Assembly (NCBI GenBank): GCA_964036045.1
Contig: OZ038392.1
Span: 18,280,612-18,344,611 of the forward strand
Origin: Eutreptiella sp. 'Long Island Sound 2002'
Taxonomy: Eukaryota > Euglenozoa > Euglenophyceae > Eutreptiales > Eutreptiaceae
Direction of reading: 5' to 3'
Length of the DNA stretch: 64,000 bases
The notes beneath the pieces were generated by a model. It worked only from the letters and a program-made list of their open reading frames with translations, was not told the origin of the DNA and ran no database searches. The position numbers and the translations under genes are program-made. Positions 19,910-62,641 of this stretch are shown here, in pieces. How positions within the stretch are numbered: position 1 is the first letter of the stretch; every line of letters begins with the position of its first letter.

Positions 19910-19930
19910 CCCTAACCCTAACCCTAACCC
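19910..19930. repeat. Interstitial telomeric repeat (CCCTAA x3.5), tandem copy 2
   Basis: Identical tract to the one 1416 bp upstream, at the same place in the second tandem unit. Confidence 0.9.
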
Positions 19931-34791: not shown

Positions 34792-34836
34792 CTTCCTTTG
34801 TCCTTCTCCATGTACCTCCCCACCCACCTTTGAGCC

Positions 34837-35250
34837 CATTAAGACACGCTTACTCTTGGGCGTCGCAAAAAACAAAGAGTCAAAGACATAAAGAATAAGT
34901 AGCATAGCATGAATGCATTAAACGAACACGCCTACTCTTGGGCGTCGCAAAATACAAAGAGTCCGCAAACCAACGGTTAAGTAGCATATGCCGCCATGCA
35001 AGCATTAAGACACGCTTACTCTTGGGCGACGCAAAAAACAAAGACTCCAAGACATGAAGAATAAGTGGCATAGCATGAATGCATTAAACAAACACGCCTA
35101 CTCTTGGGCGTCGCAAAACGCAAAGAGTCCGCAAACCAACGCGTAAATAACATACACCGCCATGCATGCATTAAGACACGCTTACTCTTGGGCGTAGCCA
35201 AAATCAAAGAGTCCAAAACGGGAAGAATAAATCAGACGCCATAGGGAGCA
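34837..35250 (+). repeat. Dimeric 166-bp tandem repeat at the 5' end of the giant LINE
   Basis: Alternating monomers of 79 and 87 bp start at 34837, 34916, 35003, 35082 and 35169. Each begins CATTAA and contains TACTCTTGGGCG followed by a CAAAGA(C/G)TC motif. The two and a half dimers lie right at the 5' end, where LINE promoters sit; tandem 5' monomers carry promoter activity in mouse L1, so a promoter role is inferred here by analogy. Confidence 0.85.
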
Positions 35251-35370
35251 ATGTGTAAAGAAAAATGTTTCCGCAAAAACAAAGAGTCCGCAACGACGCG
35301 GCCATGGTATGGCACACGCGAGCACGCACCCACACCCACACCGCACACACCACGCAACACACCGAGCACG

Positions 35371-37590
35371 CGCACCGGTGAACAGGGGCTGGGAGGCCCA
35401 GGACACCGCACGCGCAACACCGCACACCGGACACCACACACACACCGCAACACACCGCGACACCGGAGAACACGAACCAAGTGTCCCAGGACACCACACA
35501 CACAACACAACACGCACCACACGAGCGCAAAAGGGCCAAACGGCACACGCAACACCACACACAGGGCGTGCACACCGGTGAACAGGAGCCGGGAGGCCCA
35601 GGACACCGTACACACAACACCACACACAGAGCGTGCACACCGGTGAACACGAGCCAAAAGGCCCAGGACACCGCACACGCACCACCACACACAGAGCGTG
35701 CACAGCGGTGAACGGGAGCCGGGAGGCCCAGGACGCCGTACACGCACCACCACACACAAAGCGTGCACACCGGTGAACAGGAGCCGGGAGGCCAGGGACA
35801 CCGCACACGCACACAGAGCGTGCACACCGGTGAACAGGAGCCGGGAGGCCCAGGACACCGTACACGCAACACCACACGCAGGGCGTGCGCACCGGTGAAC
35901 AGGAGCCGGGAGGCCCAGGACACCGTACACACAGCACCACACGCAGAGCGTGCACACCGGTGAACAGGAGCCGGGAGGCCCAGGACACCGTACACGCCAC
36001 ATCACACGCAGAGCGTGCACACCGGTGAACAGGAGCCGGGGGGCCCAGGACACCGTGCACGCAGAGCGTGCACACCGGTGAACAGGAGCCGGGAGGCCCA
36101 GGACACCGTACACGCAACACCACACACAGAGCGTACACACCGGTGAACAGGAGCCAAGAGGCCCAGGACACCGTACGCACAACACCACACGCAGGGCGTG
36201 CGCACCGGTGAACAGGAGCCAGGGAGCCCAGGACACCGTACACGCAACACCACACACAGGGCATGCACACCGGTGAACAGGAGCCGGGAGGGCCAGGACG
36301 CCGTACACGCGACACCACACACAGAGCGTGCACACCGGTGAACAGGAGCCAGGAGGCCCAGGACGCCGTACACGCAACACCACACGCAGAGCGTGCGCAC
36401 CGGTGAACAGGAGCCGGGAGGCCCAGGACACCGTACACACAACACCACACGCAGGGCGTGCGCACCGGTGAACAGGAGCCAGCGAGCCCAGGACACCGTA
36501 CACGCAACACCACACACAGGGTGTGCACACCGGCGAACAGGAGCCGGGAGGCCCAGGACGCCGTACACGCAACACCACACACAGAGCGTGCCCAGCGGTG
36601 AACAGGAGCCGGGAGGCCCAGGACGCCGTACACGCAACGCCACACGCAGAGCGTGCGCACCGGTGAACAGGAGCCGGGGGGCCGAGGACACCGTACACAC
36701 AACACCACGCACAGAGCGTGCACACCGGCCAACAGGAGCCGGGAGGCCCAGGACACCGTACACGCAACACCACACACAGAACGTGCACACCGGTGAACAG
36801 GAGCCGGGAGGCCCAGGACGCCGTACACGCGACACCACACACAGGGCGTGCACACCGGTGAACAGGAGCCGGGAAGCCCAGGACGCCGTACACGCGACAC
36901 CACACGCAGGGCGTGCACACCGCTGAACAGGAGCCGGGAGGCCCAGGACATCGTACACACGACACCACACGCAGGGCCTGCGCACCGGTGAACAGGAGCC
37001 GGGGAGCCCGGGACACCGTACACGCAACACCACACACAGGACGTGCACACCGGTGAACAGGAGCCGGGAGGCCCAGGACGCCGTACACGCAACACCACAC
37101 ACAGAGCGTGCACACCGGTGAACAGGAGCCGGGAGGCCCAGGACGCCGTACACGCAACGCCACACGCAGAGCGTGCGCACCGGTGAACAGAAGGCGGGAG
37201 GCCCAGGACACCGTACACGCAACACCACGCACAGAGCGTGCACACCGGTGAACAGGAGCCGGGAGGCCCAGGACGCCGTACACGCAACGCCACACGCAGA
37301 GCGTGCGCACCGGTGAACAGAAGGCGGGAGGCCCAGGACACCGTACACGCAACACCACACACAGAGCGTGCACACCGGTGAACAGGAGCCGGGAGGCCAA
37401 GGACGCCGTACACGCGACACCACACGCAGGGCGTGCACACCGGTGAACAGGAGCCGGGAGGCCCAGGACGCCGTACACGCGACACCACACGCAGGGCGTG
37501 CACACCGGTGAACAGGAGCCGGGGGGCCCAGGACACCGTACACACGACACCACACACGGAGCGTGCACACCGGTGAACAGGAGCCAAGCG
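35371..37590 (+). repeat. Tandem array of about 65-bp units (CACCGGTGAACAGGAGCC)
   Basis: Roughly thirty-odd diverged copies of a 64-66-bp unit, each with CACCGGTGAACAGGAGCC, GGGAGGCCCAGGACACCG and a CA-rich spacer. Three further copies of the same unit occur near the 3' end of the element (61877-62050). The array is open in several frames on the - strand, giving long Cys/Val-rich ORFs that I regard as artefacts. Confidence 0.92.
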
Positions 37591-38109
37591 GCGCGGCACA
37601 CCACACGAGCAACCCGCCCCCAAAACTAACCCAGCCCACGCCGCCCTGCAGGAAAGAAACACCATGTCAGACCGCCAAGACCAACCGACTGGCCAAGGCC
37701 AACCCAGCGGGTACGAAGAGGGTGGGCAGGCAGGGCAGGCCGGCGAAGAGGGACAGAGGGACAAGGCGGGGAAAACGAGAGGAGGGGTCCGAACCCCCCC
37801 CCCCCAACGTGCACACACCCCACTGCCGCGCACCGGGCCACAGCCGGGCACCAACAGGGCCCGCCATGGAGCCAAACGGGCCCGCCAGAGAGAGGGTGTG
37901 TCCCCGCGCCTGCGCAGCAGCACGCCCGGGCAAGGAGCGCGCGCCACACACAGGCCAAGCAGGGCACACACGCAGCACCGCACGCCAGCACGCACCACGG
38001 CACAAAAACACGACACCACCACGGCAAACACCCACACCCGACGACGAACGAGCCGCCAAGAACAAGTCCAAGCCCCGCAGTCCCCAAAGCGCGACAGCCG
38101 CCGTCCAGA
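37591..38109 (+). other. 5' region of the giant LINE between two tandem arrays
   Basis: GC-rich sequence with a C-run near 37796; no supported gene. It ends with the first, now separated, piece of the 64-bp array that resumes at 43195. Confidence 0.5.
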
Positions 38110-38122
38110 TGGACGTGTGTGC
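38110..38122. other. Target-site duplication of nested element, left copy
   Basis: TGGACGTGTGTGC, identical to 43195-43207. It belongs to the 64-bp repeat unit of the host element, so chance matching within an array must be considered, but the split of one unit into two halves fits an insertion. Confidence 0.72.
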
Positions 38123-38480
38123 TCCATGACTCGGATTGTCGCGCGCGCTGGGCCCTGTCCCAGAACGAAATAAAAAGACGAGTAAAACACGACGAAAAAA
38201 TTTTCTGAATAGCTGAAAATAAAGCTAATTAGCATAAAAAACGCTTAGGCCAAAAAGCGCGCTGCAAAACGCGTAAAAACGCGACAAAATTTTTTTCGAC
38301 GTGAAATAGGTGAATAGTTAACGCCGTAAGCACCGTAACGCTCGTGGGACCCCAACGCCGTCCTTGCCGTCGTCTAACTCACTATAGGCGCAAAGAAAAA
38401 CGCGTCGCGAGCAGCGCGTAAAACTCGAAAATTTTTCATAACACGCCACGACCCCTCACGTCGCGCCCTGCCGCCTTTTT

Positions 38481-40570
38481 CTTCTTATTCTTCATGCACC
38501 TCCCTCCCCACCCTCGTGCCCATCACTCCCCTTGCCCTGCAGCTCAGGCGGCGGCCCTGGGGGAACGCGGTAAACCCTTAGCAATGGACGGCAACACGCT
38601 CCACGACGCCACGCACAAGAACGAGACCGAGAACATCAAGAACGACGGGTACCACGTAAGGCACAGCAGCGAACATGGTCTTGCTGCACGCGAGTGTGTT
38701 GGGTCGTGTATAATTTTATTTTATTTTCAAAAAAAAAAAAAAACAAAAAAAAAAAAAAAAAGAGGTTTGAAAGGCACGGAAAAACGGCAGGGGTTTTTAG
38801 CAAAAGAAGAGAGGACAAAACAAACACCAGCAGCGCAGACAACCGCACAGCACAGCCAACCAGCACAGCACCGCAGGACAGCACGGCACCGCAGGACACG
38901 GCACAGAGCGCAGGACACCACAGGACAACGCACAGCACAGCAAGACACCACGACACACCAGAGCAGCACCACCACACCGCAGAACGCCCAGGGAGACACC
39001 ACAACGCACAGGGACACGCCACACCACGAGGCACCAACAACAGCGCAGACCACACGGGCGCCGCACGACAGGCCGCAGGAGGGCAAAGCAAACACAAACA
39101 GCACCGCAAAACGACATCAGAGCACGACAGCACAGCACCACACGACAGCACAGCGCCACAGCACACGACACAGGGAAGCAGGGCACCACAGCCAGCACAA
39201 CAAGGCACCGCAGCGCACAGAGCGGAGAAGACAGGGAATGCACAGCGCGAGGAAAAGAGCACCACAGCACGCAGACACCACCACCGGGCCAAAAACAGCA
39301 CAGCCAACCAACAGCACAACACAGCACAGCACGACGGCCCACAGGAGGGCAAACCAAGCCCCAACAGCACCGCAACACGACAGCAGAACACAACAGCACA
39401 GCACCACGCGACAGCACAGCACCACAGAACACAACACAGGAAAGCAGGGCACCACAGCAAACCACACCAACCACAGGGAAGCAGACCACACAGCCAGACA
39501 GGGACACCGACACCGAAACACGCCACCAGCAGACAACCACGGGCCACCAGACCCAGCACCGCACCACGGCACACCACAGGAAACAGCACAACACACAGCA
39601 GCGCACCACAGCACCAGGCGCCAGCAACAGCACGCACCACACGAACAGCACAACGCGAGCGCACCAGCACAGCGAAGCACAGCACCGCACAGAACGGAGA
39701 GCACAGGGAACGCACAGCACAGCACCCCGAGACACACACAGCACAAGGCAGAGCGGCGAACAACAGCACGCACCACCACGCCACGACAAAACACACACAG
39801 CACAGAGCACACAGCGCGGGGGGACACCGCAAAACACAGCGCCGCAGAGCACAGGGCCACAGGGGGACGGGCAGCGCCAGAGGGCACGGCGCAACCAAAC
39901 GAGCGCAACACAGCACACGACAGCACAACACCGGGCGACACAACACGCAGCAGCGCGGCGCAGCACCGCACCCAGGCACGCACAGCACAACACGACACAC
40001 AGCACCGAGCGGCAGGAACGAAAACCGCGCGACACAAGGGGGGGGGGGGGGGGGGGGGGGGGGCAGCAACCACGCGGGAGCAGCCATCAGCCAGGCGGAA
40101 AGCACGAAAGAGGGACAAGCGCACGGAGAGCCGAGAAGCGGAAGGCCAACAAAACAAACAACGCAAGCGCCGAGGCCCAGGGCACCCGGGGCCGGAAACC
40201 AGAGAAAGCCGGAGACAACGGGGGCGCACGGAGGAAGAAGAAGAGGGAGAAAAAAAAAAAAAACAAAGGCCACAAGCAGGAGCGACAAAAAGCGCCAGAC
40301 ACAAAGGTGGGGGGGGGGCGGGGGAGCAACCACCAAAGAGCAGCCAACGGCCAAGCGGGAGACACAAACGAGGCGCGAGCCAGGCAGAGGGAGGCCGAGA
40401 AAAACAACCAACGAGGAACGGCAACAGCAGCGAAAGAGAGAGGGGCAACCGCAGCCCGGAGGGGGCCAAGCAAAGCAGAAAGACAAAGCGGCCAAAGGAA
40501 AGGGTGAGGCGCACCAGAACGCGCCCGGGAGGCCGGCCCGCCCGACCCGGCCAAGCAAAGCACGCACACC
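38481..40570 (+). other. CAC/CAG-rich low-complexity body of the nested element
   Basis: Begins with a C/T-rich box (CTTCTTATTCTTCATGCACC) resembling the very first bases of the giant LINE. An A-run at about 38730-38761 and a G-run at about 40040-40063 flank a long stretch made mainly of CACAGCAC-like words. Open frames occur in several phases and both strands, with no domain visible. Confidence 0.55.
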
Positions 40571-42003
40571 ACCGCCGCCAGCGGACCCCAGCCAGGAGTG
40601 GCGGGGACCGCCCACCACCAGCGGCAGCGAAACCCAGCCAGCAGTGGCGGGGAGTAGCACACAGGAACCTCCGCCAGGAGTGGCGAGGAACCCCAACAAC
40701 ACACCACACACCACACCACACACCACACACCACCGCCGCCAGCGGACCCCAGCCAGGAGTGGCGGGGACCGCCCACCACCACCGGCAGCGAAACCCAGCC
40801 AGGAGTGGCGGGGAGTAGCACACAGGGACCTCCGCCAGGAGTGGCGAGGGACCAACCACACCACACACCAACCACAACCCCAACAACACACCACCGCCAC
40901 ACACCACACACCGACGCCGCCAGCGGACCCCAGCCAGGAGTGGCGGGGACCGCCCACCACCACCGGCAGCGAAACCCAGCCAGGAGTGGCGGGGAGTAGC
41001 ACACAGGAACCTCCGCCAGGAGTGGCGAGGGACCAACCACACCACACACCAGCCACAACCCCACCAACACACCACCGCCACACACCACACACCACACACC
41101 ACCGCCGCAAGCGGACCCCAGCCAGGAGTGGCGGGGACCGCCCACCACCACCGGCAGCGAAACCCAGCCAGGAGTGGCGGGGAGTAGCACACAGGAACCT
41201 CCGCCAGGAGTGGCGAGGGACAAACCACACCACACACCAGAACAACCCCACCAACACACCACCGCCACACACCACACACCACACACCACACACCACACAC
41301 CACACACCACCGCCGCAAGCGGACCCCAGCCAGGAGTGGCGGGGACCGCCCACCACCACCGGCAGCGAAACCCAGCCAGGAGTGGCGGGGAGTAGCACAC
41401 AGGAACCTCCGCCAGGAGTGGCGAGGGACCAACCACACCACACACCAGCCACAACCCCACCAACACACCACCGCCACACACCGCACACCACACACCACCG
41501 CCGCAAGCAGACCCCAGCCAGGAGTGGCGGGGACCGCCCACCACCAGCGGCAGCGAAACCCAGCCAGGAGTGGCGGGGAGTAGCACACAGGAACCTCCGC
41601 CAGGAGTGGCGAGGGACCAACCACACCACACACCAGCCACAACCCCACCAACACACCACCGCCACACACCGCACACCACACACCACCGCCGCAAGCAGAC
41701 CCCAGCCAGGAGTGGCGGGGACCGCCCACCACCAGCGGCAGCGAAACCCAGCCAGGAGTGGCGGGGAGTAGCACACAGGAACCTCCGCCAGGAGTGGCGA
41801 GGGACCAACCACACCACACACCAGCCACAACCCCACCAACACACCACCGCCACACACCACCGCCGCCGGCAGACCCCAGCCAGGAGTGGCGGGGACCGCC
41901 CACCACCACCGGCAGCGAAACCCAGCCAGGAGTGGCGGGGAGTAGCACACAGGAACTTCCGCCAGGAGTGGCGAGGGACCAACCACACCACACACCAGCC
42001 ACA
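40571..42003 (+). repeat. Tandem array of about 185-bp units with GCCAGGAGTGGCG boxes
   Basis: Eight units begin near 40583, 40746, 40926, 41113, 41321, 41509, 41697 and 41871 (spacing 160-208 bp; differences lie in the CACCACACA spacer). Each unit carries three GCCAGGAGTGGCG boxes, about 24 in all. The function is unknown; such boxes may bind a protein or help recognition of the RNA. Confidence 0.9.
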
Positions 42004-42730
42004 GAGCAAGCGCCAGCCGAAGAAAGGCAAAGGGAGGAACAGCCAGGCGGCCCCCCCCCCCCCCCAAAAAAAAAAAAGGGGGGGGGGGGCTGGGCGCGCG
42101 AGAACAGCCCACAGCCACCAAACCGCCGCCAACAACACAGAAGGGGGCCAAACCCCCACACACAGAGAGCACCGAAGACAGGACCCCCAAACAGGTACAG
42201 GGGGAACACCCAGCTAAAACCGGCAACACCAAGCCAGGAACAGCGGCCGAGCGGGAAAAGGAGCACCGAAACAAGCAGAAAAAAAAAAAAAAAAACAAAA
42301 GCCAGCAGCCCAGCCCGAAAGAAAGGAGACGGGGGGAGAGACCACAAGGCCCGGGACGGGGACACCCAGCAACCGGAAAAAAAAAAAAAGCGCAAAAAAC
42401 ACAACCCGACAACCCAGCCAAGAAGGGCGGGGCACAGCCGAGACCCGGGCCCAGCACGCACGCCCACACCGCACACCGAAACCGGAAACGGCGGGGGGCA
42501 AGGGAAACGCGCACGAAACCACACAGGTCCCGAAAGCAGGCCGACACCAAAGCCCAACCACGAACACCACAAACAGCCGGCAAAAGAGGGACAACACCAC
42601 AAACCGAGCCCAAACACACCCACCCAAGACCCCAGCCACAACGGGCAGGGGTAAACAAAACCCACCACCAAACGCAACCCGGACCCAACCACAAACGCAA
42701 GCCAACAGTAGGAAACCCAGTGCCCACAGA
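42004..42730 (+). other. A-rich and C-rich part of the nested element; no gene
   Basis: Contains C, A and G homopolymer runs near 42050-42090, 42280 and 42376. No supported coding sequence. Confidence 0.5.
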
Positions 42731-43194
42731 CGGGCACTGAGGCAGCCCGTGCCATGCAGGTGACCCGGCCAAACGAGATCCGGAGCCCGGGGGTAAGGCT
42801 GCATCCTAAGGCCAGCGCTGCTTTGGGACTCGAGGCGGAGCGTGCGACACCCAAGCGCCTCGGAACCCTAGTACCAAGAACATGCATGCATGCCTTGGGA
42901 ACGGGATACGCCAGGAAGTCCGGTGAACCCCTAGGGTTCCGCCCAAAGGAGGGGACGTGCGCAAGCACGGGGGCCCACCCTCCCGGCGAGACAAGCACGT
43001 CACGCTGGCGGCGATCAGCCCTCCCGGTGTAGCCCGGGGCCGCTTTGTTGGGGGCCAAAAGTCAGGTCTAGCGGGATGTAAGCCGCCTCCCCTCTTCACG
43101 CGCGGAGCCTCTTCCTGTTCGTCACAGGGGCGACGCCAAGGGGGAACCATGGGGCGCCTCTCCACGACCGAGTGCACCTACCTACCTACCTACC
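42731..43194 (+). other. 3' end module of nested element with ACCT tail
   Basis: Shares CCGCCCAAAGGAGGGG (about 42940) and the terminal ACCT repeats with the 3' end of the giant LINE (about 62395 and 62611). In LINEs the 3' end is what RT recognises, so the shared part is the likely recognition signal. Confidence 0.6.
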
Positions 43195-43560
43195 TGGACG
43201 TGTGTGCGCCCGGCAGTGAACCCAGCCCCTGCCGGCTACGAACCAGCCGCCGTCCGGATAGACGTGTGTGCGCCCGGCAGTGAACCCAGCCCCTGCCGGC
43301 TACGAAACAGCCGCCGTCCGGATGGACGTGTGTGCGCCCGGCGGTGAACCCACCCCCTGCCGGCTACGAAACAGCCGCCGTCCGGACGGACGTGTGTGCG
43401 CCCGGCAGTGAACCCAGCCCCTGCCGGCCACGAAACAGCCGCCGTCCGGAGGGACGTGTGTGCACCCGGCAGTGAACCCAGCCCCTGCCGGCTACGGAGC
43501 AGTCGCCGTCCGGAGGGACGCGTGAGCACCCGGCGCCACCTGCCGGACGGGCTACCGGAC
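43195..43560 (+). repeat. Tandem array of 64-bp units (GACGTGTGTGCGCCCGGCAG)
   Basis: Units start near 43197, 43261, 43325, 43388, 43453 and 43517. Each has GACGTGTGTGCGCCCGGC, CCCCTGCCGGCTACG and CAGCCGCCGTCCGG. The upstream fragment at 38093-38122 belongs to the same array and was separated by the nested element. Confidence 0.9.
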
Positions 43561-50318: not shown

Positions 50319-50349
50319 CGGGGCCGGGGCCGGACACGGCCCGCCCCCC
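50316..50349 (+). promoter_or_regulatory. Candidate stop-codon readthrough signal (UGA-CGG plus hairpin)
   Basis: The ORF1 stop is UGA followed by CGG, the known type II readthrough context of some plant RNA viruses. Directly after it, 50320-50349 can fold: GCCGGG pairs with CCCGGC... arms around a GACA-like loop, with an outer GGGG:CCCC stem separated by a 3x3 internal loop. Downstream the same frame has no stop until 51188. Confidence 0.6.
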
Positions 50350-51044
50350 CTACTACCGGTCCCCAGAAACCGGCGCCTGCAGAAGCCCACGCCCGCATCA
50401 ACATCCTCAACGAGCCCGCGGTCACCTACGACCCCACCAAGGCCGCCACACTGCAAGCCATGCCCGGGCCGCACCCCCAAGGCGCAGACCTCCTCGGGTT
50501 CCTGGAGCAAGCCCTCTGCAGAGCGGACCAACCCGAACCAGCACCGATCCTGGACCCAGAGGGGAACAAATATCACGCCAACTGGGAACGGGGGGTACCC
50601 CTCTACCACAAGACGTCGGTCACGGTACATGCCCACCCCGACCTCGGAGTGGATGGTCGCCTCGGGGCGTACGAGTGCGTGGGGCCCGGATGGCAGCTAA
50701 ACGTGCTACTCACGCACGTCCCGTTCGGGGAGGAGACCAAGGACTTCCTGGACACCCTGAGCCTGGCGTACCGCCGACTCTCCCTCCTGGCACCTACCAT
50801 CATCATAGGCGACCTAAACGCCGCCCCCACCGGCGACGACCGCACCGGCCTACCCACAGCCACCGACACAGCTGTCCGGGACGCCATGCACCAACTGGGC
50901 CTCACGGACCGCACGGCAGGACTCACCGGCACACCCTCCCATTACCCCCACCAAGCCGGCACCCACCCATCCCGCATCGACACGTGCTACGGGGACCCAA
51001 CCACGGTGCGCGTCCACGAAGCAGCCTACGGGGACCTCCCGCCT
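50319..51044 (+). CDS. Giant LINE AP endonuclease domain (same frame as ORF1)
   Basis: Encodes an APE-type endonuclease that would nick target DNA for first-strand priming. From the ORF1 stop the frame is open; the first ATG is only at 50460, after a piece (ARINILNEPAVTYDPTKA) that fits the beginning of the domain. Later motifs are IIIGDLNAAP (50799-50828, the GDxN motif) and SRIDTCYG (50968-50991, the SxID motif). The final GHRPLY motif, equivalent to SDHRP, appears only in the next frame at 51055-51072, so a one-nucleotide shift is needed near 51043-51050 to join with RT. The N-terminal Asn and Glu catalytic positions are not clear, so either the N-terminus is diverged or the copy is damaged. 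Expression is inferred to be by readthrough from ORF1. Confidence 0.78.
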
Positions 51045-54000: not shown

Positions 54001-55644
54001 TTCACCAACGAGCGGGCAGACCCGGACAGCGTAGCCATGGAGTACGACCGCTGCGACCCACACCGCGCAGGACCTCAGGAGGCACCCATGCGCCCCCTAC
54101 AGCACAAATGCCCCACCCTCCGCGGCGACAAAGACGACAAGGAGCGGCGACAGACCATCACGTGCCAGAAGTTCCACCCCAATACGGGATACCTCTTCCA
54201 CCTGATGTACGCGTATATCACCCAGGGACGCCCAGACAGGGGCCTCCTCCGCCTCACCCCACGAGCCCAGGCCATCATCACCCAGGGAATAGGCGTCTAT
54301 GCAGCGCCACTACTGCAACCCACGCAAATCACTGCCAGAACCACCCAGGGGAACCCCATCTACGTCTATCACCCCACAGCAATCGCCCGCCTGCCCATAC
54401 CCAGCGACACCGACATCATCTACTTCACTGACGCATCCGGCACCCAGCAACGCACCCCCACGGTCGGTTGCGCCTCCGTGCGCATCACCCGGCACGCGGA
54501 CGGCCTCCACGTGGAACACCACACCGGGACCACCATCTTTGGGGCGTCCTCCCACGGCGAACTGCGCACCATGGCAGACGCCGTCACCGCAACACCGCCA
54601 CCCACGACGGTCCGGCCCCGCAACATCTGGGTAGTCGTGGACGCCACGGTCGACATCCACCTCACCAGGCGCCTTGGGGACCTGCCCCTCCACAAAGCAC
54701 TCGAGTCCGGCCTCACCACACAAGCGTTGGGACTATGGATGGCCTTCAAGGGCATGCACCCCCAGGACGCCCTACACATCGTCAAGCAGGAGTCACACCG
54801 CTACGCATACGGCAATGGACGCGCAGACACGCAGGCCAAACACCAGAACACAAACCACACCCCAGGGCTCGAACGCGTGCGACTGGACACCCCACACCAC
54901 AGCCACCTGCAGCACCTGCCCCCGATGCCCCTGGCCACACAGCCCCCCCAATGGATGCCCGAGGACACGCCGTACACGGATCGAGACAAGCAGTACCACT
55001 ACCCCACACCCATCCAGCAACTGGCCACCACACTGGGCCACCCAGCGAACACCGAACTCCTCCGACGCCTCGAAAACTCCGTCCACACCCCCCTCTACTA
55101 CTCCGCCCTGCGCCCGGATAGCCTCCCAGCACACCTACAAAAGCCCCGACTCCAACTCGCCCTCGAACAGCTTCCCCTCCTCACCCGATACCACCGATGG
55201 TATACGCGCCGCTCGATCCACGTCCCCGCAGGACACACCAAATGCATCTGCAGCCACGCGGAAGAAGAAACATGGGACCACTTCAAGGCGTGCCCCCTGT
55301 ACAGAGGACTGGACACCCTCACAGACTGGAACCCAACCCACACCATCGCACAGCACGCCGGATGGCTGGCGCAGTCCCCGGCGACGGAGCAACTCACCAC
55401 CGTCCTCAAGCAGACAGAGGTGCTCGAGGCAGTCCGCAGGGGACTCGTCCCCACTGCCGTCTACACCTTACTACGCACCCACGCGGAGGACCCCCAGGCC
55501 ACGGCGGCGCACATGCAGCGGACGGCCGTTGCCAAGACGGCGGAGCAGCTCACATACCGCACCCACAAATACCTGCAGCATGCGGCAACCCTGCCCCCAA
55601 CAGACCAAGCCCACCTCCTCAAACTCCTGTTCTACCAACCATGA
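51043..55644 (+). CDS. Giant LINE reverse transcriptase, RNase H and C-terminal zinc motif
   Basis: This frame starts with the end of the endonuclease (GHRPLYIDL) and the first ATG is 51244. Residue numbers are from that ATG. RT has NWRPIVCATTEVK (fingers), SLDVQGAFPHAPH (motif A Asp 318), SGVPQGGAEGP, and the catalytic box NFADDN (Asp 416 and 417). RNase H lies at about 1055-1200, with YFTDASG (Asp 1063), HGELRT (Glu 1106), VVVDATVD (Asp 1133) and NGRADTQA (Asp 1195), so all four catalytic positions are present. A C-terminal CICSHAEEETWDHFKAC cluster (Cys 1334 to Cys 1350) is the usual CCHC of LINE ORF2. The enzyme would copy the element RNA onto nicked DNA. The stop TGA at 55642 overlaps an ATG (ATGA, 55641-55644). 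Confidence 0.93.
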   Translation, partial: LTGTGHRPLYIDLIIPNLPPPAATLPDDTLPPTLQFPAEDDHGAWHRYNRALHAILRRLGAPTLTTAMRRAAQACGMERDTNHTGAPPDLTLQQLVHDIWTTKGQLATLLRPSTPEARDRDAHLRALLTTRRHQLQEWHAHRIAAAAQERERYGRNDTPHKSLRYVSRILEDTGRRTIHAVRTPEGGLTNDPDAVLQAVLDSFQAQHGDALPELDPHTRNTIREHVPRVFNREQRRAIEHDPFSISELQRALDRLKKGVVPGVDSLPAESYQRLTLPIKRRLAARLWDIVTGATPIPPEWANLVHPLYKKGDWAQPGNWRPIVCATTEVKLVWTLILGRIAPAVFAHVPASMWGAMAGRSPHEAIFLQDTALDMNPYEMIIASLDVQGAFPHAPHRLLTEVWDAMGLPFLSFMTGYIQTRLYAVITAAGLTPWTGTDSGVPQGGAEGPFLYLLVTLPLAFELARVYPGYAPYPLRSPLINFADDNLLTTATRHRDPENAGLPTTTEQASAILQLTTTYLDAHQLLVHPRKSVGLADAKTPTPHIRKGEPLHLEDTTVHLGVTQATQHHHITLPSKLEERLARLPQIARGDLLSTQGLAYFMEAVLNAAIGYQALHLPRPQDALRHARQQVTKAWAQHGGWPTSFPKEAMMAHWRYYGDNTGALVDMAYAKHAAHLLHRVTHNHQPEVREAAAIRIKEAQMARNTCPRWILAQHGVSTPVGTGIWAQLQLLLPHHTHAILTNHHCDQQGPLVATHTDIHRRPAGEADTLRLVGATITIVYITPTQMKIMAQCDAHHAPFLSDPQWPARHVFQAYLRACATKAGRDMPGPKDIDTAYTAFQRQHPRPRLSEHETPNDGGTTQGEPTPSAEGWTPPTILLLAPNGHKHATRTVQRHHAPWSIPKHNAPETDVPPVRHSDQGIPCTCWHCGPAALDTPWPLLHLISTHYRTPTAAATADQQAWHPPWFHTVPPDHPAHVAWTRTPTATWTFTNERADPDSVAMEYDRCDPHRAGPQEAPMRPLQHKCPTLRGDKDDKERRQTITCQKFHPNTGYLFHLMYAYITQGRPDRGLLRLTPRAQAIITQGIGVYAAPLLQPTQITARTTQGNPIYVYHPTAIARLPIPSDTDIIYFTDASGTQQRTPTVGCASVRITRHADGLHVEHHTGTTIFGASSHGELRTMADAVTATPPPTTVRPRNIWVVVDATVDIHLTRRLGDLPLHKALESGLTTQALGLWMAFKGMHPQDALHIVKQESHRYAYGNGRADTQAKHQNTNHTPGLERVRLDTPHHSHLQHLPPMPLATQPPQWMPEDTPYTDRDKQYHYPTPIQQLATTLGHPANTELLRRLENSVHTPLYYSALRPDSLPAHLQKPRLQLALEQLPLLTRYHRWYTRRSIHVPAGHTKCICSHAEEETWDHFKACPLYRGLDTLTDWNPTHTIAQHAGWLAQSPATEQLTTVLKQTEVLEAVRRGLVPTAVYTLLRTHAEDPQATAAHMQRTAVAKTAEQLTYRTHKYLQHAATLPPTDQAHLLKLLFYQP

Positions 55645-55659
55645 GAACCTACCCCGTGA

Positions 55660-58600
55660 CATACCAACACCGAACCCCCACCACGTCTACACACCGTCCA
55701 CCGAGCACAGCACTGGCACAGCACACACGGGCGCCACAGGCACCGCACACGCTCCGACCAGCATGCGCGCGCCACCAGCCCCCATCCCCCCACGCCGCCG
55801 TCTGTCCACAGGTACCACCAACCACCAGCCACCGCATGTCCCCTCTGCGTTCGCCAGCGGCTACCACAGACAGCCCTGCCCTGCAACCCAGACCACTGGG
55901 TCTGCCTGGGAGCCGCGCACCGCCTCACCCACTGCCCCCACTGCGGGGAACTCAACCCCCGCCACCGCGAACGGCCCGCGGCCCCAGCCGCACCCCCCCC
56001 CGCCAGCCACCCCAGCTTCTTCGGGTACCTCACCGACACCCTCCGGGACCAACTGGGAGGGTACTACGTGGCGGACGCGGCGGACCACGCATGGGCCATA
56101 GCCGTGGCCGCGGGCAACACACCCCTGCCCCCCCACAGCCCACCCCTACGCCACAGCGGAGGCGGCTTGAACGTGGCGGCCCGCCACATCCTCTTCGCCC
56201 TATACCTCCACCACCGAGACCTACACGTCCCAGACCCACAACTCCCGGCCCCCAAAGGAGCAGCCCTGACGCCGGAAGCGTGGGCCGACAGGGCACCAGA
56301 GGAGATAGCAGCCTACCTCCGAACCACGTGCCGCCGGTTCACAAACGCCCTCGGCCGACGGAAGGGAACACCTTACCCCCTCAGCGCACTCCTCTACCCG
56401 GCACACCACCCCCACCCCGCACAACAGACGCCCCCGGAGGGCTGGGCGTCTTTTCGGGACGCCCACCTGGCCGCCCCCGACGAGGCCACGGCCACGCGGA
56501 TGGGCCTCACGGACCAGGAGGCCTACGTCAGAGGCCTCAAGACGAGCCTCCAAGAGGCACACCGCTGGCACGCCCGCTCCCCGTCGCCCCCACGGGGACA
56601 GGGGGGTTCACCCGCCCCCGACACCCAACAGGCCAAGAAGACCAAGACAGGTCAGGGGGCCCGCCAACGCGCCCGCCAGCAGGGCGCGACGCCCCAACCA
56701 AGGCCCTGGTCCAGCCACACCGCACCGCCCCACGCCCAGACCCCCGGGGCACACCAACAACACCACCACCACCAACGCCCACCACCACCACCGTACCGCA
56801 GCACAGAAACCCTGCAGCCCAGTCAGCCACCACCGCCCAAACACGTCCACACCATGCCAGGACCACTGTACGCGCAGAGCCAGGGGACATGGCACCACCA
56901 ACACCACCACCGCGCCCCCGTCCCTCCCAACCCCTACCCCCTAATTCCCCCAAGCTACAGCGACCCCCACCAGCTACATCCCCACCACGCCCCAGCACAA
57001 CCAGGCCCCGCGAACCACCTACCCCACATAGCGCACATCACCGCACCACACCATCACGTGTTCCACCACCACCAGCCCCTGCCACCACACCCACCAACGC
57101 CGGGGTACCACACACAACCGGCACACCCTCCACACCACCACCACGCGGTCCAGCACCACCCGCCGCCCCCGCTACACGGGCCCACGACATACGAGCCACG
57201 GTACACCCCCATGGACCCGCGAGGAGCCGCGCACGCACACCAGCAACACCAGGGCCTAGTAGTAGCGCCCCGGCACCACCAACAGCCCCCCCACCCACAC
57301 CCCATACCAGCGAGCACCATCCACCAGCAGCCACCCATCACATACGGACCACAGCCCCACCCGGGGGCTCATGCGGTCGCCTCCCACCCGCACCCCGGCA
57401 CCGCAACCAGTCAAGAACTGCAAGGGCCACACGGCGCACACACGCAACACCCACACGACCCACAGGGACGCCCGGACCCCCAGCCGGCACAACACCCACC
57501 CCCGCCCCCCCCTCCCCACCACCACCAGCAGCCCCCCCACCCTAACCCCATACCAGCGAGCACCAACCACCAGCAGCCACCCATTACATACGGACCACAG
57601 CCCCACCCGGACGCTCATGCGGCCGCCTCCCACCCACACCCCGGCACCACAACCAGTCAAGAACCGCAAGGGCCACACGGCGCACACACGCAACACCCAC
57701 ACGACCCACAGGGACGCCCAGACCCCCAGCCAGCACAACACCCACCCCCACCCCCCCCACCACCAACAGCGCCACCCCCACACCACCCCCCCCCGCCCCC
57801 CCCCCGAGACCAGGCCACGGACACAACACGCGGCAGCCAGCACCAGCCAATCGACGTCGATACCCCCGCCTACACACGCCACCGCGAATCTCCCCTCCCG
57901 CGACCGCCACAAGAGACCCCATCACCGGACCCCACGCGCGACAACGATGACCACCCCCCCCAACCCACACCACCCCCCCCATCACACCCCGCACCACCAG
58001 TCGCCGCACCGGCCGAACCCTACGCCCTACACAACCCCGCAGCGGTACGGCAGCACCTCCGGGGACTCGGGGAACAGGACGTCGTGCTGTACCTCCGCAC
58101 CTCCGGCACCAGCACCCCCATCCGGGCGGCCACCCTGGTCCAGGCGGCCACCCTGGGGGAAGGCGTCAGAGACTTCCTCTTCGACGCCTTCCTCCACGTC
58201 GCCCGACACGAGCGCCCCCCACGCGCCACCCCAGACGGCGAGAGCCCGCCCCCCACGGGGAACCGGATCTGGGTGCCCCCCATCGACTGGGGGCGACACC
58301 TGGTCGGACACCCCGTGCCGGAGCGGGACAGCACCCAGGGCCGCACCCGCTACCGCGAGCCCAACATGGCCCACCCCCCACCCGACGCCACCCCCGACAG
58401 CACCAAAGAGTGGGAGCGGGAAACATGGGTAGCCCGGATGGCCTCCCTAAGCAACTTCCGGCACCACGTCCCGGGGGACATCCCCACCCCCGACGAGCAG
58501 CAGCCAGCCCCCTCCACGTACATGACCCTCATGTACAATCTGCACTACACCCTCTCCACCACCACCTACGACGCACCCACAGACCTCTGGGTGGTACACG

Positions 58601-59109
58601 GCACCGACTCCCTCCTCCCCGCCGACTACACCCCCCCCCCACACAACCCAGGCCCCGACACGTACGCCAGGGGGGACGACCCGGCCGACCCCCACATCTG
58701 GGGCACGTGGGAACCCGAATCCCTGGACACGCTGCTCTCCATCCGCAGCGGCTGCCAGGGCCTTGGTAGGGCAACGTATTGCCTCGCCAAGTGGACCCAA
58801 CGGACCTGGGGGATCCCCACGGACCGATGGGTGTGGGTGGTCACGCTGCGCCCCCAGCAGAGGGAAGCCCCCCAAAACCGCAGGGGACCCACCCCCCCAC
58901 GCCCCACCACCCCACAACTCTGCCCGTACATGGTGGCAGCCCGCCTCATGACGCTGCTATGGCCGGGCCCCCACACCCCCACCCAAAACTACCCCCACCT
59001 CACAGAGGAGGACATGCCCGGCATCCAGCGATGCTTCTTCCGGACCCTCGACTACCTCCAGCAAACACACCCCCACGTCCTGGAGCAGATATGGCCACCC
59101 CCCGGGTAA
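55660..59109 (+). CDS. Giant LINE ORF3: RING-like cluster, Pro/His repeats, unknown C-terminal domain
   Basis: Open in the RT frame, beginning after two TGA codons (55642, 55657), and ending at TAA 59107-59109. No ATG occurs before 56068 (GTG), so initiation is unclear: by readthrough, by a frame change after the ATGA at 55641, or at a non-ATG codon. A Cys/His cluster at 55837-55944 (CPLC, then C-x3-H-x2-C-x4-H, then CPHC) has RING-like spacing. A conserved-looking segment follows (FFGYLTDTLRDQLGGYYVAD), then a long Pro/His/Gln region with an 82-codon tandem duplication (about 57274-57765), then a globular C-terminal domain from about 58020 (DVVLYLRTSGTSTPIRAATL, DLWVVHGTDSLLP, GLGRATYCLAKWTQRTWGIP). 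I recognise no family. LINEs do not normally carry such a protein downstream of RT. Confidence 0.68.
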   Translation, partial: HTNTEPPPRLHTVHRAQHWHSTHGRHRHRTRSDQHARATSPHPPTPPSVHRYHQPPATACPLCVRQRLPQTALPCNPDHWVCLGAAHRLTHCPHCGELNPRHRERPAAPAAPPPASHPSFFGYLTDTLRDQLGGYYVADAADHAWAIAVAAGNTPLPPHSPPLRHSGGGLNVAARHILFALYLHHRDLHVPDPQLPAPKGAALTPEAWADRAPEEIAAYLRTTCRRFTNALGRRKGTPYPLSALLYPAHHPHPAQQTPPEGWASFRDAHLAAPDEATATRMGLTDQEAYVRGLKTSLQEAHRWHARSPSPPRGQGGSPAPDTQQAKKTKTGQGARQRARQQGATPQPRPWSSHTAPPHAQTPGAHQQHHHHQRPPPPPYRSTETLQPSQPPPPKHVHTMPGPLYAQSQGTWHHQHHHRAPVPPNPYPLIPPSYSDPHQLHPHHAPAQPGPANHLPHIAHITAPHHHVFHHHQPLPPHPPTPGYHTQPAHPPHHHHAVQHHPPPPLHGPTTYEPRYTPMDPRGAAHAHQQHQGLVVAPRHHQQPPHPHPIPASTIHQQPPITYGPQPHPGAHAVASHPHPGTATSQELQGPHGAHTQHPHDPQGRPDPQPAQHPPPPPPPHHHQQPPHPNPIPASTNHQQPPITYGPQPHPDAHAAASHPHPGTTTSQEPQGPHGAHTQHPHDPQGRPDPQPAQHPPPPPPPPTAPPPHHPPPPPPRDQATDTTRGSQHQPIDVDTPAYTRHRESPLPRPPQETPSPDPTRDNDDHPPQPTPPPPSHPAPPVAAPAEPYALHNPAAVRQHLRGLGEQDVVLYLRTSGTSTPIRAATLVQAATLGEGVRDFLFDAFLHVARHERPPRATPDGESPPPTGNRIWVPPIDWGRHLVGHPVPERDSTQGRTRYREPNMAHPPPDATPDSTKEWERETWVARMASLSNFRHHVPGDIPTPDEQQPAPSTYMTLMYNLHYTLSTTTYDAPTDLWVVHGTDSLLPADYTPPPHNPGPDTYARGDDPADPHIWGTWEPESLDTLLSIRSGCQGLGRATYCLAKWTQRTWGIPTDRWVWVVTLRPQQREAPQNRRGPTPPRPTTPQLCPYMVAARLMTLLWPGPHTPTQNYPHLTEEDMPGIQRCFFRTLDYLQQTHPHVLEQIWPPPG

Positions 59110-59688
59110 CCCACGTGCCCGCGCAGCCGAGACAACGCCGCCACGCCAGCACCAGCACGCACGGATCACCAGGGAAAACGCGCGCACACGCCCGATGCCC
59201 GAACCTGCACCCTCGTTCTCGCTACTTACAGGACCCAGCATCATACGCCCGCCCCCGAGGCCCGGGACCCTCCGCCGTCTCCCACAGCCCTCTCCTCCGC
59301 CTCCGACTCCACAACCTCCACCACCACGACCACCTCATCCACCACCACTACCACGTCCTCATCCAGCACTCCACCCCCCAGGCCGCGGGGGACACCTCCC
59401 AAACGGGCCTCCAAACCCGCCCCCATCGCGAGCAGCCCCGCCACCGCCAAAGCCCACGCCCCGGCGAAGCCCACGCCCACGACTCAGCCGAAGCCCAAGA
59501 CCGCCTCCAAATGGCGACCCGCAGCCAAGCCCAAACCCAAGCCCAAACCCGGCGCCACGACGGCAGCGCGAGCCCGGCCCCCCGAGGATGTCCTCTACGA
59601 CATCCGGCCCCAGCCGTTCCAGGCCCGAAGGCAGCAGCGCCCAGCGCGGCGCCCCCCCACCGTCACCGACGCCACCGCCACCACCTTC

Positions 59689-60513
59689 ATGGCGGAGCGC
59701 GCCGCGGCCGAAGCGCGACGCGCCTCGTCCCACCACCTCCCAAAGCCCGCACCCCAGGCCCACGGACCGCTCCAGGGTCCACCAGCAGCGCCCCCGCCCC
59801 CCTACCGGCCCCCGATGACAGCCCACGTGCAACGCATGCCCCACTACCGCCGCCGCCGCGAAACCCCGCCCAACCCCGAGGCGGAGACCGTACGCGCACA
59901 CCCGCGGGTCCACATCCGCGTGCACCCCCACTCCCCACTCACCCCCACGGAACAGGACTACGAGGAATCCCCCAGGCCCGCCACCGCCGCCGGTCCCCAC
60001 GACCCCGTCACACCCACCCACGCCCACTCCTCCGCCCAAGACCGCAGGCCCGCCCAGGAACAGTGGTGGCAGCGCTGGACCCACAAGCAGCTCTGGGAGC
60101 TGCGGAAGTGGGCCCGGGGAGAGCCCTCCCTCGAGGGCCTGGTCCATCGGCCCCGCAAGGGGTCGGTGGAGAACTGCCGCCTCCGGCCGGCGGGGGGGTG
60201 GATGCCGCAGGCCGCATGGGAAGCCATGCTGGCCGATGCGCTCCACCCCCTGGGAGTCCATCCCCGCAACCTCCCCGCGCCCCAGGACGGCCCGTATGTC
60301 CTCAGGCGCCTGCGGGAGACCCTCCAGGAAACGCGGCGAGACGGCATCCGCCTGTGGGACATCACCCAAAGCCCAGCCCCGCACGCACACACCCCCTCAC
60401 CACCCCACAAGCGTCGGCGCACCGACACCGGCGACACCCACAGCACCCCAGGAGCCCTGCGCGCCACACAACACGACGCGCCCGACCCCCCGGCCAGCGG
60501 CGCCGCCATCTAA
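59689..60513 (+). CDS. Giant LINE ORF4: basic protein, unrecognised
   Basis: ATG at 59689, stop TAA at 60511. The frame is the same as ORF3 and is open all the way from its TAA at 59107, and the part before the ATG encodes a plausible Ser/Thr-rich then Lys/Pro-rich stretch (KPKPKPKP, PPEDVLYDIRPQPF). It may therefore be longer or be joined to ORF3 by readthrough. The 274-aa product has an Arg-rich segment (HYRRRRETPP), a Trp-rich helical region (QWWQRWTHKQLWELRKWARG) and a C-terminal KRRRTD that could be a nuclear localisation signal. No family recognised. A role in binding nucleic acid would fit the charge but is a guess. Confidence 0.55.
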   Translation: MAERAAAEARRASSHHLPKPAPQAHGPLQGPPAAPPPPYRPPMTAHVQRMPHYRRRRETPPNPEAETVRAHPRVHIRVHPHSPLTPTEQDYEESPRPATAAGPHDPVTPTHAHSSAQDRRPAQEQWWQRWTHKQLWELRKWARGEPSLEGLVHRPRKGSVENCRLRPAGGWMPQAAWEAMLADALHPLGVHPRNLPAPQDGPYVLRRLRETLQETRRDGIRLWDITQSPAPHAHTPSPPHKRRRTDTGDTHSTPGALRATQHDAPDPPASGAAI

Positions 60514-60715
60514 CCCCGTTACCCAGCACACCAACACCACGGGGCGCCACGCCAGGCCCGGCCCAGAAGTCACCAAACGAACCGGACGCCGAAGGAAGCC
60601 AACGCACACGACAACGAGCACCACTACGCCCAAAAGCGCCGAACCCAGGCCCGATACCGTGGGCTCCTCTCCACCCTCAGCACGACACACACGTCACTGA
60701 CGTCACTCCTCCGCT

Positions 60716-61108
60716 GTGCCCCCTCCCACGCCACCGCCCCGCCCCCCCCCCTCCCGCTGCACGTCCCCACGCCGCCCAGCACCCAGCCCCACACACTGCG
60801 CCACAGCATCGCTCACTTGGCACCTCACAGTAGACCGCCGTCCTGTGGTCCCGCTCCCCCCAGCACCGCTCCCGGGGCCGCACCCGGCCCACGTCGTGTT
60901 CGCCCCCACGTCGCGGGCCGCGGACATCCTCCCGCTCCTTGCCGCCACCCCTCCCGGGCATCGCATACTGCTTGCCGCCAACCCCTCGGTCCTCAGTGAG
61001 GTCCTCATCGGGCACGCCGACGCCCTGCACGTGCCCCCGCTGCTGCCCAACCTGCACGCTGCGTACGCCCCCGGCACGCCCGTCGACCCCTCCGTGTGGG
61101 ACTCCTAG
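60716..61108 (+). CDS. Giant LINE possible small ORF5 (about 130 aa)
   Basis: The frame opens at 60701 and ends at TAG 61106; the only early candidate start is the GTG at 60716. The C-terminal 80 residues (HVVFAPTSRAADILPLLAAT, HRILLAANPSVLSEVL, LLPNLHAAYAPG) alternate hydrophobic strands and helices like a real domain, and codon third positions are mostly C or G as in RT. There is no family match I know. It could be a chance open frame in a T-poor strand. Confidence 0.38.
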   Translation: MPPPTPPPRPPPSRCTSPRRPAPSPTHCATASLTWHLTVDRRPVVPLPPAPLPGPHPAHVVFAPTSRAADILPLLAATPPGHRILLAANPSVLSEVLIGHADALHVPPLLPNLHAAYAPGTPVDPSVWDS

Positions 61109-61199
61109 TGAGGCCACCGGACCACCCCGCACTCGCCTTGGGCGCACGACCCCGTGGACGCCGCTACCCACACGCCCGGCCCCGCGCCACCGCCAAACC

Positions 61200-61567
61200 G
61201 AGCCAGAACTCAAGCACAAATCAAACCCGAGCCACACCCCGAAACCGCTAACCCTTGACTCCTAACCAAACCCGCCGAGGGAACAACGTAACCACAGCCC
61301 ACACCCACAGCCCACACAGCCGCCTAACCAGCCAGCTCCAGAAGCAAAGAGACACCTCACCATACCCACCCTGACCCAAGCCTAACCGAGCCGAAGCCCC
61401 AACACAAATCAAACCCGAGCCACACCCCGAAACCGTCAACCCTTGACTCCAAACCAGGCCCGCAGAGGGAAATACGTGGACACAGCCCACAGCCACAGCC
61501 CACACAGCCGCCTAACCAGCCAGCACCAGAAGCAAAGAGACACCTAAACAAACCCACCCTGACCCAT
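61200..61567 (+). repeat. 188-bp tandem duplication in the 3' region
   Basis: Two copies, about 61200-61387 and 61388-61567, share CACAAATCAAACCCGAGCC, CCACACCCCGAAACCG and CCAGAAGCAAAGAGACACC. They differ by substitutions and short indels. Confidence 0.88.
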
Positions 61568-61720
61568 ACCCGTGTACATCAGGACACGCGAGCCGCACCC
61601 CTGGGGCGCAACCGCCGCCACAGCACCGACGACACACGCCAGAGGACACAACGCTATAGCACCGCCGCACCAGCTGCCCGTGCCTGTGCCTGCAATGTAC
61701 GTGCGCCCCTGTTTACCACT

Positions 61721-61814
61721 TTTTTGTTTTTTCTTTTTCTTTTTTCCAAAAAAAAAAAAAGAAAAAAACAGGTAAAAAAAAAAAAAAAAAAAAACAAGTA
61801 AAAAAAAAAAACGA
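61721..61814 (+). promoter_or_regulatory. T-rich then A-rich tracts (possible RNA hairpin)
   Basis: A T-rich run (about 61721-61747) is followed by long A runs (61748-61814) interrupted by GAAAAAAACAGG and CAAGT. In the RNA these can pair, or a U-rich loop could clamp an A tract. This lies about 0.8 kb from the 3' end. Such a tract could also be the remains of an internal poly(A). Confidence 0.45.
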
Positions 61815-61876
61815 AAATTAGGGGGGGAGGAAGAAGGACACAACCACCCAGGGCACACGCGCACCGCACACAGCTA

Positions 61877-62055
61877 GCACACCGGTGAACAGGAGCTGGG
61901 TGGCCCAGGACACCGCACATGCAACAGAACACACCGAGTGAGCACACCGGTGAACAGGAGCCAGCTGGCCCAGGACACCGCAGACGCACCACAGCAAACC
62001 GCGCGGGCACACCGGTGAACAGGAGCCCAACGGCCCAGGACACTGCACACACGTA
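61877..62055 (+). repeat. Three 3'-region copies of the 5' 65-bp repeat
   Basis: Three units with CACCGGTGAACAGGAGC and GGCCCAGGACACCGCA, at about 61880, 61942 and 62010, match the array at 35371-37590. The same motif family thus lies in both terminal regions of the element. Confidence 0.88.
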
Positions 62056-62626
62056 GGGAGGCCGAGGGACAGGAAAGAACCAATACCCCATGGGTCGGAC
62101 GCACTGGGGCGACCCAGCCGACCCACCGGGCCAGTGGCAGGAGCGGTACTCCAAGGCCACTGGTCCGAGCCCGGCCAGGCTGCATCGGGGACCATGGCAA
62201 ACGTCACCCGGAGCCATGGAAGCAACCGGTGACAGGCGAGCCGGTACACAGTCCAGGAGGGGGTCACCTGCCAAGCAGAGTGGCCCCGCAACTCAAGCCA
62301 CAAGGGTGAGGCGGTCGTACCGTAGACAAGCGGGAGCAATACCCCTTGTGGTGAGAGATACTCCACACGACTGGGCAGCCCCCCAGAGCTGCCGCCCAAA
62401 GGAGGGGGCATGTGGCCCTACCCATGGACACATGTGGGGACACCCTCCCACCTGGGACACATGGACCGGGTGGCCGCGACAATGCCTTCCCAAGCACATG
62501 CGGGAGCGGCTCAAGAGTCACCTGACATAGGGCAGTGGGAGGGACAGGACGTCCCCTTGGTAAGACCTTCTTCCTGCAATGTCAAAGGAGGCATCCCAAG
62601 CTCCCGAAGATACCTACCTACCCTAC
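62056..62626 (+). other. 3' terminal region and ACCT-like tail of the giant LINE
   Basis: No gene. Contains CCGCCCAAAGGAGGGG-like sequence at about 62393 shared with the nested element, and ends TACCTACCTACCCTAC. A short repeat tail instead of poly(A) occurs in several LINE clades. Confidence 0.75.
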
Positions 62627-62641
62627 CTGGGCTTCCCGCCT
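62627..62641. other. Target-site duplication of the giant LINE, right copy
   Basis: CTGGGCTTCCCGCCT, identical to 34777-34791. Sequence resumes with GGCGCCATCAGGATC, matching copy A. Confidence 0.93.

What the first reader, a model, noticed from the sequence alone, without database searches (positions are those of the whole stretch)
34792..62626. A 27.8-kb LINE with an exactly mapped insertion and the empty site in the same window
Seen: identical 15-bp CTGGGCTTCCCGCCT on both sides, uninterrupted target in copy A (6445-6459), APE endonuclease, RT with FADD, RNase H, and an ACCT-like tail. Known: LINEs are usually 4-7 kb with one or two ORFs. Even without the nested insertion this one is about 22.75 kb and carries at least two extra proteins. 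If the whole length moved as one unit it would be among the largest non-LTR retrotransposons and could be a new clade.
Basis: partly seen in the sequence, partly recalled or inferred. Interest (0 to 1): 0.95.

Follow-up and report, generated by a model that had tools for sequence, protein, structure and literature searches.

The report
Giant 23-kb LINE retrotransposon family
A jumping gene of the LINE type, about 23,000 letters long and so several times longer than usual LINEs, has copied itself whole, and in shortened pieces, around a large eukaryotic genome.

Summary
The 15-bp duplication flanks 34792-62626 exactly, and a paralogous repeat in the window has the uninterrupted site; a second empty site lies on another contig. 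Without the nested insertion the element is 22,750 bp. Other copies settle the main doubt: two read in full match end to end (23.8 and 23.1 kb), and three more reach that 5' end (two exactly, one within 11 bp) with the 3' end at the expected distance. Others are 5'-truncated but keep the same 3' end, as target-primed reverse transcription predicts. The whole length moved as one unit. The window copy itself lacks about 690 bp at the 5' end. It encodes ORF1 (1,277 aa), an APE-RT ORF2, ORF3 and probably ORF4. A sister family (ORF2 about 50% identical) keeps ORF1-ORF2-ORF3. In both, ORF1 and ORF2 share one frame, split by UGA-CGG-GGC plus a predicted hairpin, and ORF2 residues before the first AUG are conserved: stop-codon readthrough is likely. 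Not shown: RNase H by profile, LINE clade, host identity. My literature searches listed no LINE of this size.

The parts
34777..34791 (+). target-site duplication, left copy, 15 bp
   Evidence: identical to 62627-62641 and to the empty site 6445-6459
34792..38122 (+). 5' leader of the giant LINE, left part: 166-bp repeats 34837-35230, 65-bp repeats about 35327-37613; first about 690 bp of the full element missing here
   Evidence: c22 and c6a continue upstream to GTCGCGCGATCG
38123..43195 (+). nested 5.07-kb insertion with no recognised gene, ending (CTAC)n; its last 1.2 kb is 88.7% identical to the 3' UTR of the sister giant LINE
   Evidence: absent from c22, c6a and c6b at this point
43196..46484 (+). 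rest of the 5' leader (64-bp repeats 43196-43534)
46485..50318 (+). ORF1, 1,277 aa from a putative AUG, ends in UGA; no Pfam match
   Evidence: (relative P0046, 377 member sequences, 97%)
50316..50347 (+). UGA-CGG-GGC junction and predicted hairpin between ORF1 and ORF2
50319..55644 (+). ORF2: APE-like endonuclease, RT (FADD), RNase H-like motifs, C-terminal Cys/His motif; frame change near 51.0 kb in this copy
   Evidence: relative P0006 is unbroken (1,727 aa, 469 member sequences)
55660..59109 (+). ORF3, up to 1,149 aa: Cys-pair motif (by eye), Pro/His-rich middle, C-terminal part with a weak match in the sister family
59091..61108 (+). probable ORF4, spread over more than one frame in this copy
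61109..62626 (+). 3' UTR with T-run/A-run about 61720-61811, three 65-bp repeats 61872-62050, (TACC)n-like tail
   Evidence: same 3' end in 14 of 20 anchor-sampled copies
62627..62641 (+). target-site duplication, right copy
6445..6459 (-). uninterrupted target in the paralogous repeat (copy A)

Best explanation
This is a near-complete copy of a giant APE-type LINE, about 23 kb, inserted by target-primed reverse transcription into a Ty3/gypsy-like repeat. Shown from sequence: exact insertion with a 15-bp duplication; end-to-end copies elsewhere; 5'-truncated copies with one common (TACC)n 3' end; a sister family with the same ORF1-ORF2-ORF3 order. Inferred: one RNA of about 23 kb is made; ORF1 is translated alone, and a fraction of ribosomes read through its UGA (UGA-CGG plus hairpin) to make an ORF1-ORF2 fusion of about 3,050 aa with endonuclease and RT; ORF3 and ORF4 are made from the same RNA by an unknown route; APE nicks the target and RT starts at the UACC tail. 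The nested 5.07-kb element was probably moved in trans by the sister family.
For: Empty and filled site in one window and a second empty site (c19). c22 and c6a, read in full, are colinear with 34789-62628 apart from the nested piece and differences in repeat arrays (c22 also has 538 bp more near 57796): 23,838 and 23,054 bp from GTCGCGCG. Copy1, read in parts only, spans 23,103 bp between the same ends; copy17 starts at the same base, copy15 11 bp inside it. 3' end identical in 5 of 6 full stretches, the sixth (c19) not reached, and in 14 of 20 anchor samples. Truncated c13 has an 11-bp duplication at its break. Seven copies are pairwise 97.1-99.3% identical. Variable sites by codon position: ORF1 third 60 against 46 and 34, ORF2 third 102 against 60 and 62 (the first 600 bp or so of ORF2 were counted in the other frame). 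Sister family: 15,245-bp copy with its own duplication GTATGCTCTTCCA, ORF1 30-44%, ORF2 about 50%, ORF3 24-27% (E 2.5e-6). UGA-CGG junction in 6 of 6 family copies that cover it and in the one sister copy; pre-AUG ORF2 residues score 77 against at most 71 in 1,000 shuffles. RT profile: an entry named RNA-directed DNA polymerase 1.2e-15, L1 ORF2p 2.5e-15, R2 0.004.
Against: Only 2 copies were read completely. Of 12 copies with both junctions read, 5 show no clear duplication (c12, c6b, copy9, copy15, copy17) and in 2 (copy7, copy18) the target is itself repeated. Five of 20 anchor samples had no match at the expected 3' position. ORF3 shows no third-position excess, its protein search found only fragments (12 hits covering 5-33%; possibly swamped by low-complexity words), and both structure predictions failed (pLDDT 27 for ORF1, 41 for ORF3). 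The RNase H domain is not recognised by profile. The readthrough hairpin starts 1 nt after the stop, not about 8 nt, and is not unusual in 85-125-nt folds of family A (z -0.15, -0.42, -1.17). No RNA or protein data.
Confidence: 0.9

Rival explanations
1. Composite: a small outer element carrying 65-bp repeats inserted first, and a large RT-bearing element later landed inside its repeat array, so that the duplication belongs to the small one.
For: The same 65-bp unit occurs near both ends, with T/A runs just before the right-hand repeats.
Against: c22 and c6a have the same order over the whole length at other sites; truncated copies c13 and c12 start inside ORF1 or ORF2 and still run on through the right-hand 65-bp repeats to 62626, so the RT part and the right-hand end move together; between the stretches compared at the supposed inner junctions (37540-37760 and 61740-61900) the only shared exact match of 8 or more bases was the repeat itself.
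Confidence: 0.03
2. Assembly artefact joining several elements.
For: A nearly identical 3' end and flank lies 41.8 kb downstream (346 of 351 bases), while three other points checked there do not match, so the locus is partly duplicated or misjoined; reads are not available.
Against: The same structure recurs on several contigs with different flanks and, in several, own duplications.
Confidence: 0.03
3. ORF2 is expressed by termination-reinitiation or from its own AUG, not by readthrough.
For: Reinitiation is reported for SART1 and proposed for L1 (PMC5972666, passages seen). In-frame AUGs lie 47 and 45 codons after the stop.
Against: The residues between stop and first AUG are conserved between the two families and, by eye, include what looks like the first strand of the endonuclease; the stop context is UGA-CGG, a listed type II readthrough context (PMC3542737, passages).
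Confidence: 0.3
4. Large LTR retrotransposon or Penelope-like Terminon.
For: Size range fits Terminons, up to 40 kb (PMC6431247, passages).
Against: APE domain present; no integrase or protease among Pfam matches of the element's ORFs that were scanned; RT profile matches L1; no long terminal repeats in the self-comparison.
Confidence: 0.01

Closest known systems
LINE-1 (L1) and other APE-type non-LTR retrotransposons
   Same: APE + RT in one ORF downstream of ORF1, variable target duplications, 5' truncation, common 3' end
Terminons (giant Penelope-like elements of rotifers; PMC6431247)
   Same: giant non-LTR-type elements of tens of kb with extra ORFs, mostly 5'-truncated
   Different: different RT lineage; Terminons are described as endonuclease-deficient and telomeric, this one has APE; its place relative to telomeres was not studied
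SART1 / L1 bicistronic translation (PMC5972666)
   Same: two ORFs on one RNA with a special junction; in SART1 a downstream structure
   Different: SART1 uses an overlapping stop-start; here there is no AUG at the junction
Type II viral readthrough signals (PMC3542737)
   Same: UGA-CGG followed by a stem-loop
   Different: stem starts 1 nt after the stop and is short in family A; in a LINE, not an RNA virus

Membership tests
APE-type LINE (non-LTR retrotransposon) | reverse transcriptase | tested here: met
   RVT_1 E=1.6e-15; L1 ORF2p profile match
APE-type LINE (non-LTR retrotransposon) | apurinic-type endonuclease upstream of RT | tested here: met
   Exo_endo_phos E=1.2e-6 in P0006 (no such match for the sister P0021 in that call); IIGD-NAAP, SRID and TGH-PL at the same places in both, though TGH replaces the SDH that I recall as usual
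APE-type LINE (non-LTR retrotransposon) | insertion with variable target duplication and empty site | tested here: met
   clear in 5 of 12 copies (window, c22, c6a, c13, copy1), ambiguous in 2, not seen in 5
APE-type LINE (non-LTR retrotransposon) | 5'-truncated copies with a common 3' end | tested here: met
APE-type LINE (non-LTR retrotransposon) | RNase H domain (in some clades only) | tested here: inconclusive
   motifs conserved in two families; no profile match
a named LINE clade (L1, I, Tad, R1, RTE and others) | position in an RT tree | not tested
   no reference RT set at hand; L1 preferred over R2 by profile only
Penelope-like elements / Terminons | Penelope-type RT, GIY-YIG or no endonuclease | tested here: not met
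   APE present, RT matches L1
Type II stop-codon readthrough signal | UGA-CGG or UGA-CUA | tested here: met
   definition in PMC3542737
Type II stop-codon readthrough signal | extended stem-loop about 8 nt 3' of the stop | tested here: inconclusive
   hairpin predicted in both families with the same stem arms but 1 nt from the stop
Type II stop-codon readthrough signal | measured readthrough | not testable with these tools
   no expression data

The most novel reading that the evidence does not exclude
A previously undescribed lineage of giant LINEs, at least two families in one genome, that reverse-transcribe and integrate RNAs of about 23 kb, express their enzymes as a roughly 3,050-aa ORF1-ORF2 fusion through viral-type UGA-CGG readthrough, carry two further proteins after the RT, and support a 5-kb non-autonomous rider.
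Probability: 0.5. Interest if true: 0.88.

Novelty: new variant of a known kind. Interest (0 to 1): 0.82.

Why it matters
It would push the size at which target-primed reverse transcription makes complete copies to about 23 kb, where RT processivity is usually thought limiting (recalled). It gives natural material for asking what ORF3 and ORF4 add, and whether a LINE can use stop-codon readthrough to set the ratio of ORF1 to enzyme. The passages that I saw of a giant-transposon review (PMC6431247; 12 of 16 places found by four terms) name giant Penelope-like and LTR elements but no giant LINE.

Tried and rejected
Composite-element and assembly readings were tested and rejected above. Structure prediction of ORF1 (pLDDT 27.3) and ORF3 (41.3) gave nothing usable, so no fold search was run. 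The dinoflagellate spliced-leader pattern, recalled, was absent; Rfam at gathering threshold gave no match. Host identity: not found; Euglena gracilis was considered and set aside because its published largest chromosome is 121 Mb (PMC11252322, passages), while here C1 is 201 Mb; this is a weak ground. Genome-wide counts are lower bounds: 1,692 first-look candidates for the RT piece and 635 for the 3' end, 40 of each scored. Of the 39 other RT places listed, I looked at 26 (6 as 30-kb stretches, 20 by anchors) and left 13. Literature: searches (12, 15 of 1,443, 3, 11, 6 and 8 of 12 papers listed) showed me no LINE of this size and no UGA readthrough between LINE ORFs; searches were on Euglena and on readthrough motifs. 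I saw listings, and passages only of PMC6431247, PMC11252322, PMC3542737, PMC5972666 and PMC6696364.
Full report
Observation. The 15-bp sequence flanks 34792-62626 and occurs once more, uninterrupted, at 6445-6459 on the other strand; three one-mismatch relatives lie in the element's own 65-bp repeats. The sequences beside it are two inverted copies of a repeat that is continuous with a Ty3/gypsy-like element (RT, RNase H, chromodomain), and their alignments meet at the insertion. In c19 a copy of the same repeat again has the site empty: 33960-34791 runs into 62627-64000. The insertion is exact in the assembly. Within it, 38123-43195 is a later insertion with a 12-13 bp duplication, absent from c22, c6a and c6b at that point.

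One unit. The genome (2.28 Gb, 2,205 contigs) gave 1,692 first-look candidates for a 1-kb RT piece; all 40 scored are listed at 99-100%. I took six 30-kb stretches. c22 and c6a match the window from 34789 to 62628 without the nested piece, with differences in repeat arrays; c6b starts at 37993, c13 at 49349 and c12 at 51487, and all five end at the same 3' base; c19 starts at 49430 and is interrupted at 57263 by a gypsy-like repeat, its 3' part not seen. For 20 further places I took anchors: the 44.3-kb region was present in 9 of 20, the exact 3' end in 14 of 20, both in 6 of 20; one more ran through the 3' UTR beyond the stretch, and five had no match at the 3' position. Of the 9 with the 44.3-kb region, copy1 and copy17 begin at GTCGCGCG and copy15 11 bp inside it; the first matches of copy9, copy7, copy18 and copy5 lie within the first kilobase, those of copy20 and copy3 further in. 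So of 26 sampled copies four reach the true 5' end and a fifth comes within 11 bp. Lengths: c22 23,838 bp, c6a 23,054 bp, copy1 23,103 bp between its ends, its interior read only in parts.

Ends. c22 and c6a continue about 690 bp upstream of the window's start, so the window copy is slightly truncated. Between duplication and GTCGCGCG there are 12 extra bases in copy1 and 24 in c22; in c6a, 20 to 60, depending on where its duplication ends (15 bp exact within about 50 bp of imperfect match, by eye). The truncated window copy and c13 abut their duplication directly. The extra bases may be untemplated additions made when RT reaches the RNA end, or reflect variable start sites; this is inference from few copies. 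Clear duplications: window, c22 (10 bp), c6a (15 exact), c13 (11), copy1 (9-12). Copy7 and copy18 share their flanks, and both sides carry the same repeated target sequence, so their duplication is ambiguous. None clear in c12, c6b, copy9, copy15 and copy17.

Coding. A codon-frame score trained on the RT shows + strand coding from about 46.4 to 61.1 kb. ORF1 runs from a putative AUG at 46485 for 1,277 aa; a 97% relative stands for 377 member sequences. ORF2 has APE, RT, RNase H-like motifs and a Cys/His motif; its unbroken relative P0006 (1,727 aa) stands for 469. Variable sites among up to seven copies favour third codon positions in ORF1 (60 against 46 and 34) and ORF2 (102 against 60 and 62; its first 600 bp or so counted in the other frame), not clearly in ORF3 (24, 36 and 30 in three segments against 19-26, 25-34 and 26-30), slightly in the ORF4 region (38 against 28 and 24). 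ORF3 rests on codon score, open frame and weak similarity to the sister family; ORF4 is less certain. The leader before ORF1 is about 7.1 kb in c22 (arithmetic).

Sister family. c22 sits, in reverse, inside a copy of a second giant LINE. That copy has its own duplication GTATGCTCTTCCA, is 15,245 bp without c22, is truncated inside ORF1, ends ...ACCTACCGTACCTACCT, and encodes an ORF1 relative (30-44% over parts), ORF2 (P0021, 94.6%; about 50% to the window's; 758 member sequences), and an ORF3 relative (24-27%, E 2.5e-6). Only this one sister copy was seen. The nested element in the window shares 1.2 kb of 3' UTR with it at 88.7%, so it is best read as a non-autonomous rider of that family.

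Junction. In 6 of 6 family copies covering it, and in the sister copy, ORF1 ends in UGA followed by CGG-GGC, and ORF2 continues in the same frame. The 47 and 45 codons before the first AUG are conserved in sequence (score 77; best of 1,000 shuffles 71). A hairpin with identical stem arms and different loops is predicted just after the stop: z -3.3 (40 nt, family A) and -4.1 (50 nt, sister), but in 85-125-nt folds -0.15 to -1.17 for family A and -2.1 and -3.8 for the sister; two stretches upstream of the stop gave -0.08 and -0.26. The short lengths were chosen to fit the hairpin, which favours it. UGA-CGG with a stem-loop is the type II readthrough context of several RNA viruses (PMC3542737, passages). 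I therefore favour readthrough, about 65%, over reinitiation.

Comparison. RT profile: an entry named RNA-directed DNA polymerase 1.2e-15, L1 ORF2p 2.5e-15, R2 0.004. I file it as an APE-type LINE, clade untested. The size, the ORFs after the RT and the in-frame UGA set it apart; the listings of searches showed nothing like it, within an open-licence library only.

Noticed in passing
24199-30988: Arrays of a degenerate 11-bp unit (CAGCCCGATGC), over several kb, partly in opposite orientations.
   Followed up: no
18076-21326: Two overlapping direct copies of 1.8 kb, 98.8% identical, in an AT-rich stretch.
   Followed up: no
L085 (C15:18384858-18385208): The 3' end of the window insertion and its flank recur at 346 of 351 bases 41.8 kb downstream, but the other three points checked (L084, L086, L087) do not match: local duplication or an assembly matter.
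   Followed up: partly
L009:4347-4370; L067: Two copies at full length carry 24 and 12 differing extra bases between target duplication and element; the truncated window copy and c13 carry none.
   Followed up: partly
38123-43195: Nested 5-kb element without recognised genes, in part made of 188-bp and CACACCA-like repeats and A-rich stretches, ending in the sister family's 3' UTR.
   Followed up: partly
L078 and L079 with L040 and L062: Copies on C15 and C16 share the flanks seen and the same 5' break: probably one insertion later duplicated.
   Followed up: no
36867-36881, 37192-37206, 37322-37336: The element's 65-bp repeats contain, on the other strand, 14 of the 15 bases of the target sequence.
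   Followed up: no
34792-62626: Strong strand bias: the + strand is T-poor (AT skew up to 0.95 in the nested part), so long open frames arise in several frames by composition alone.
   Followed up: yes
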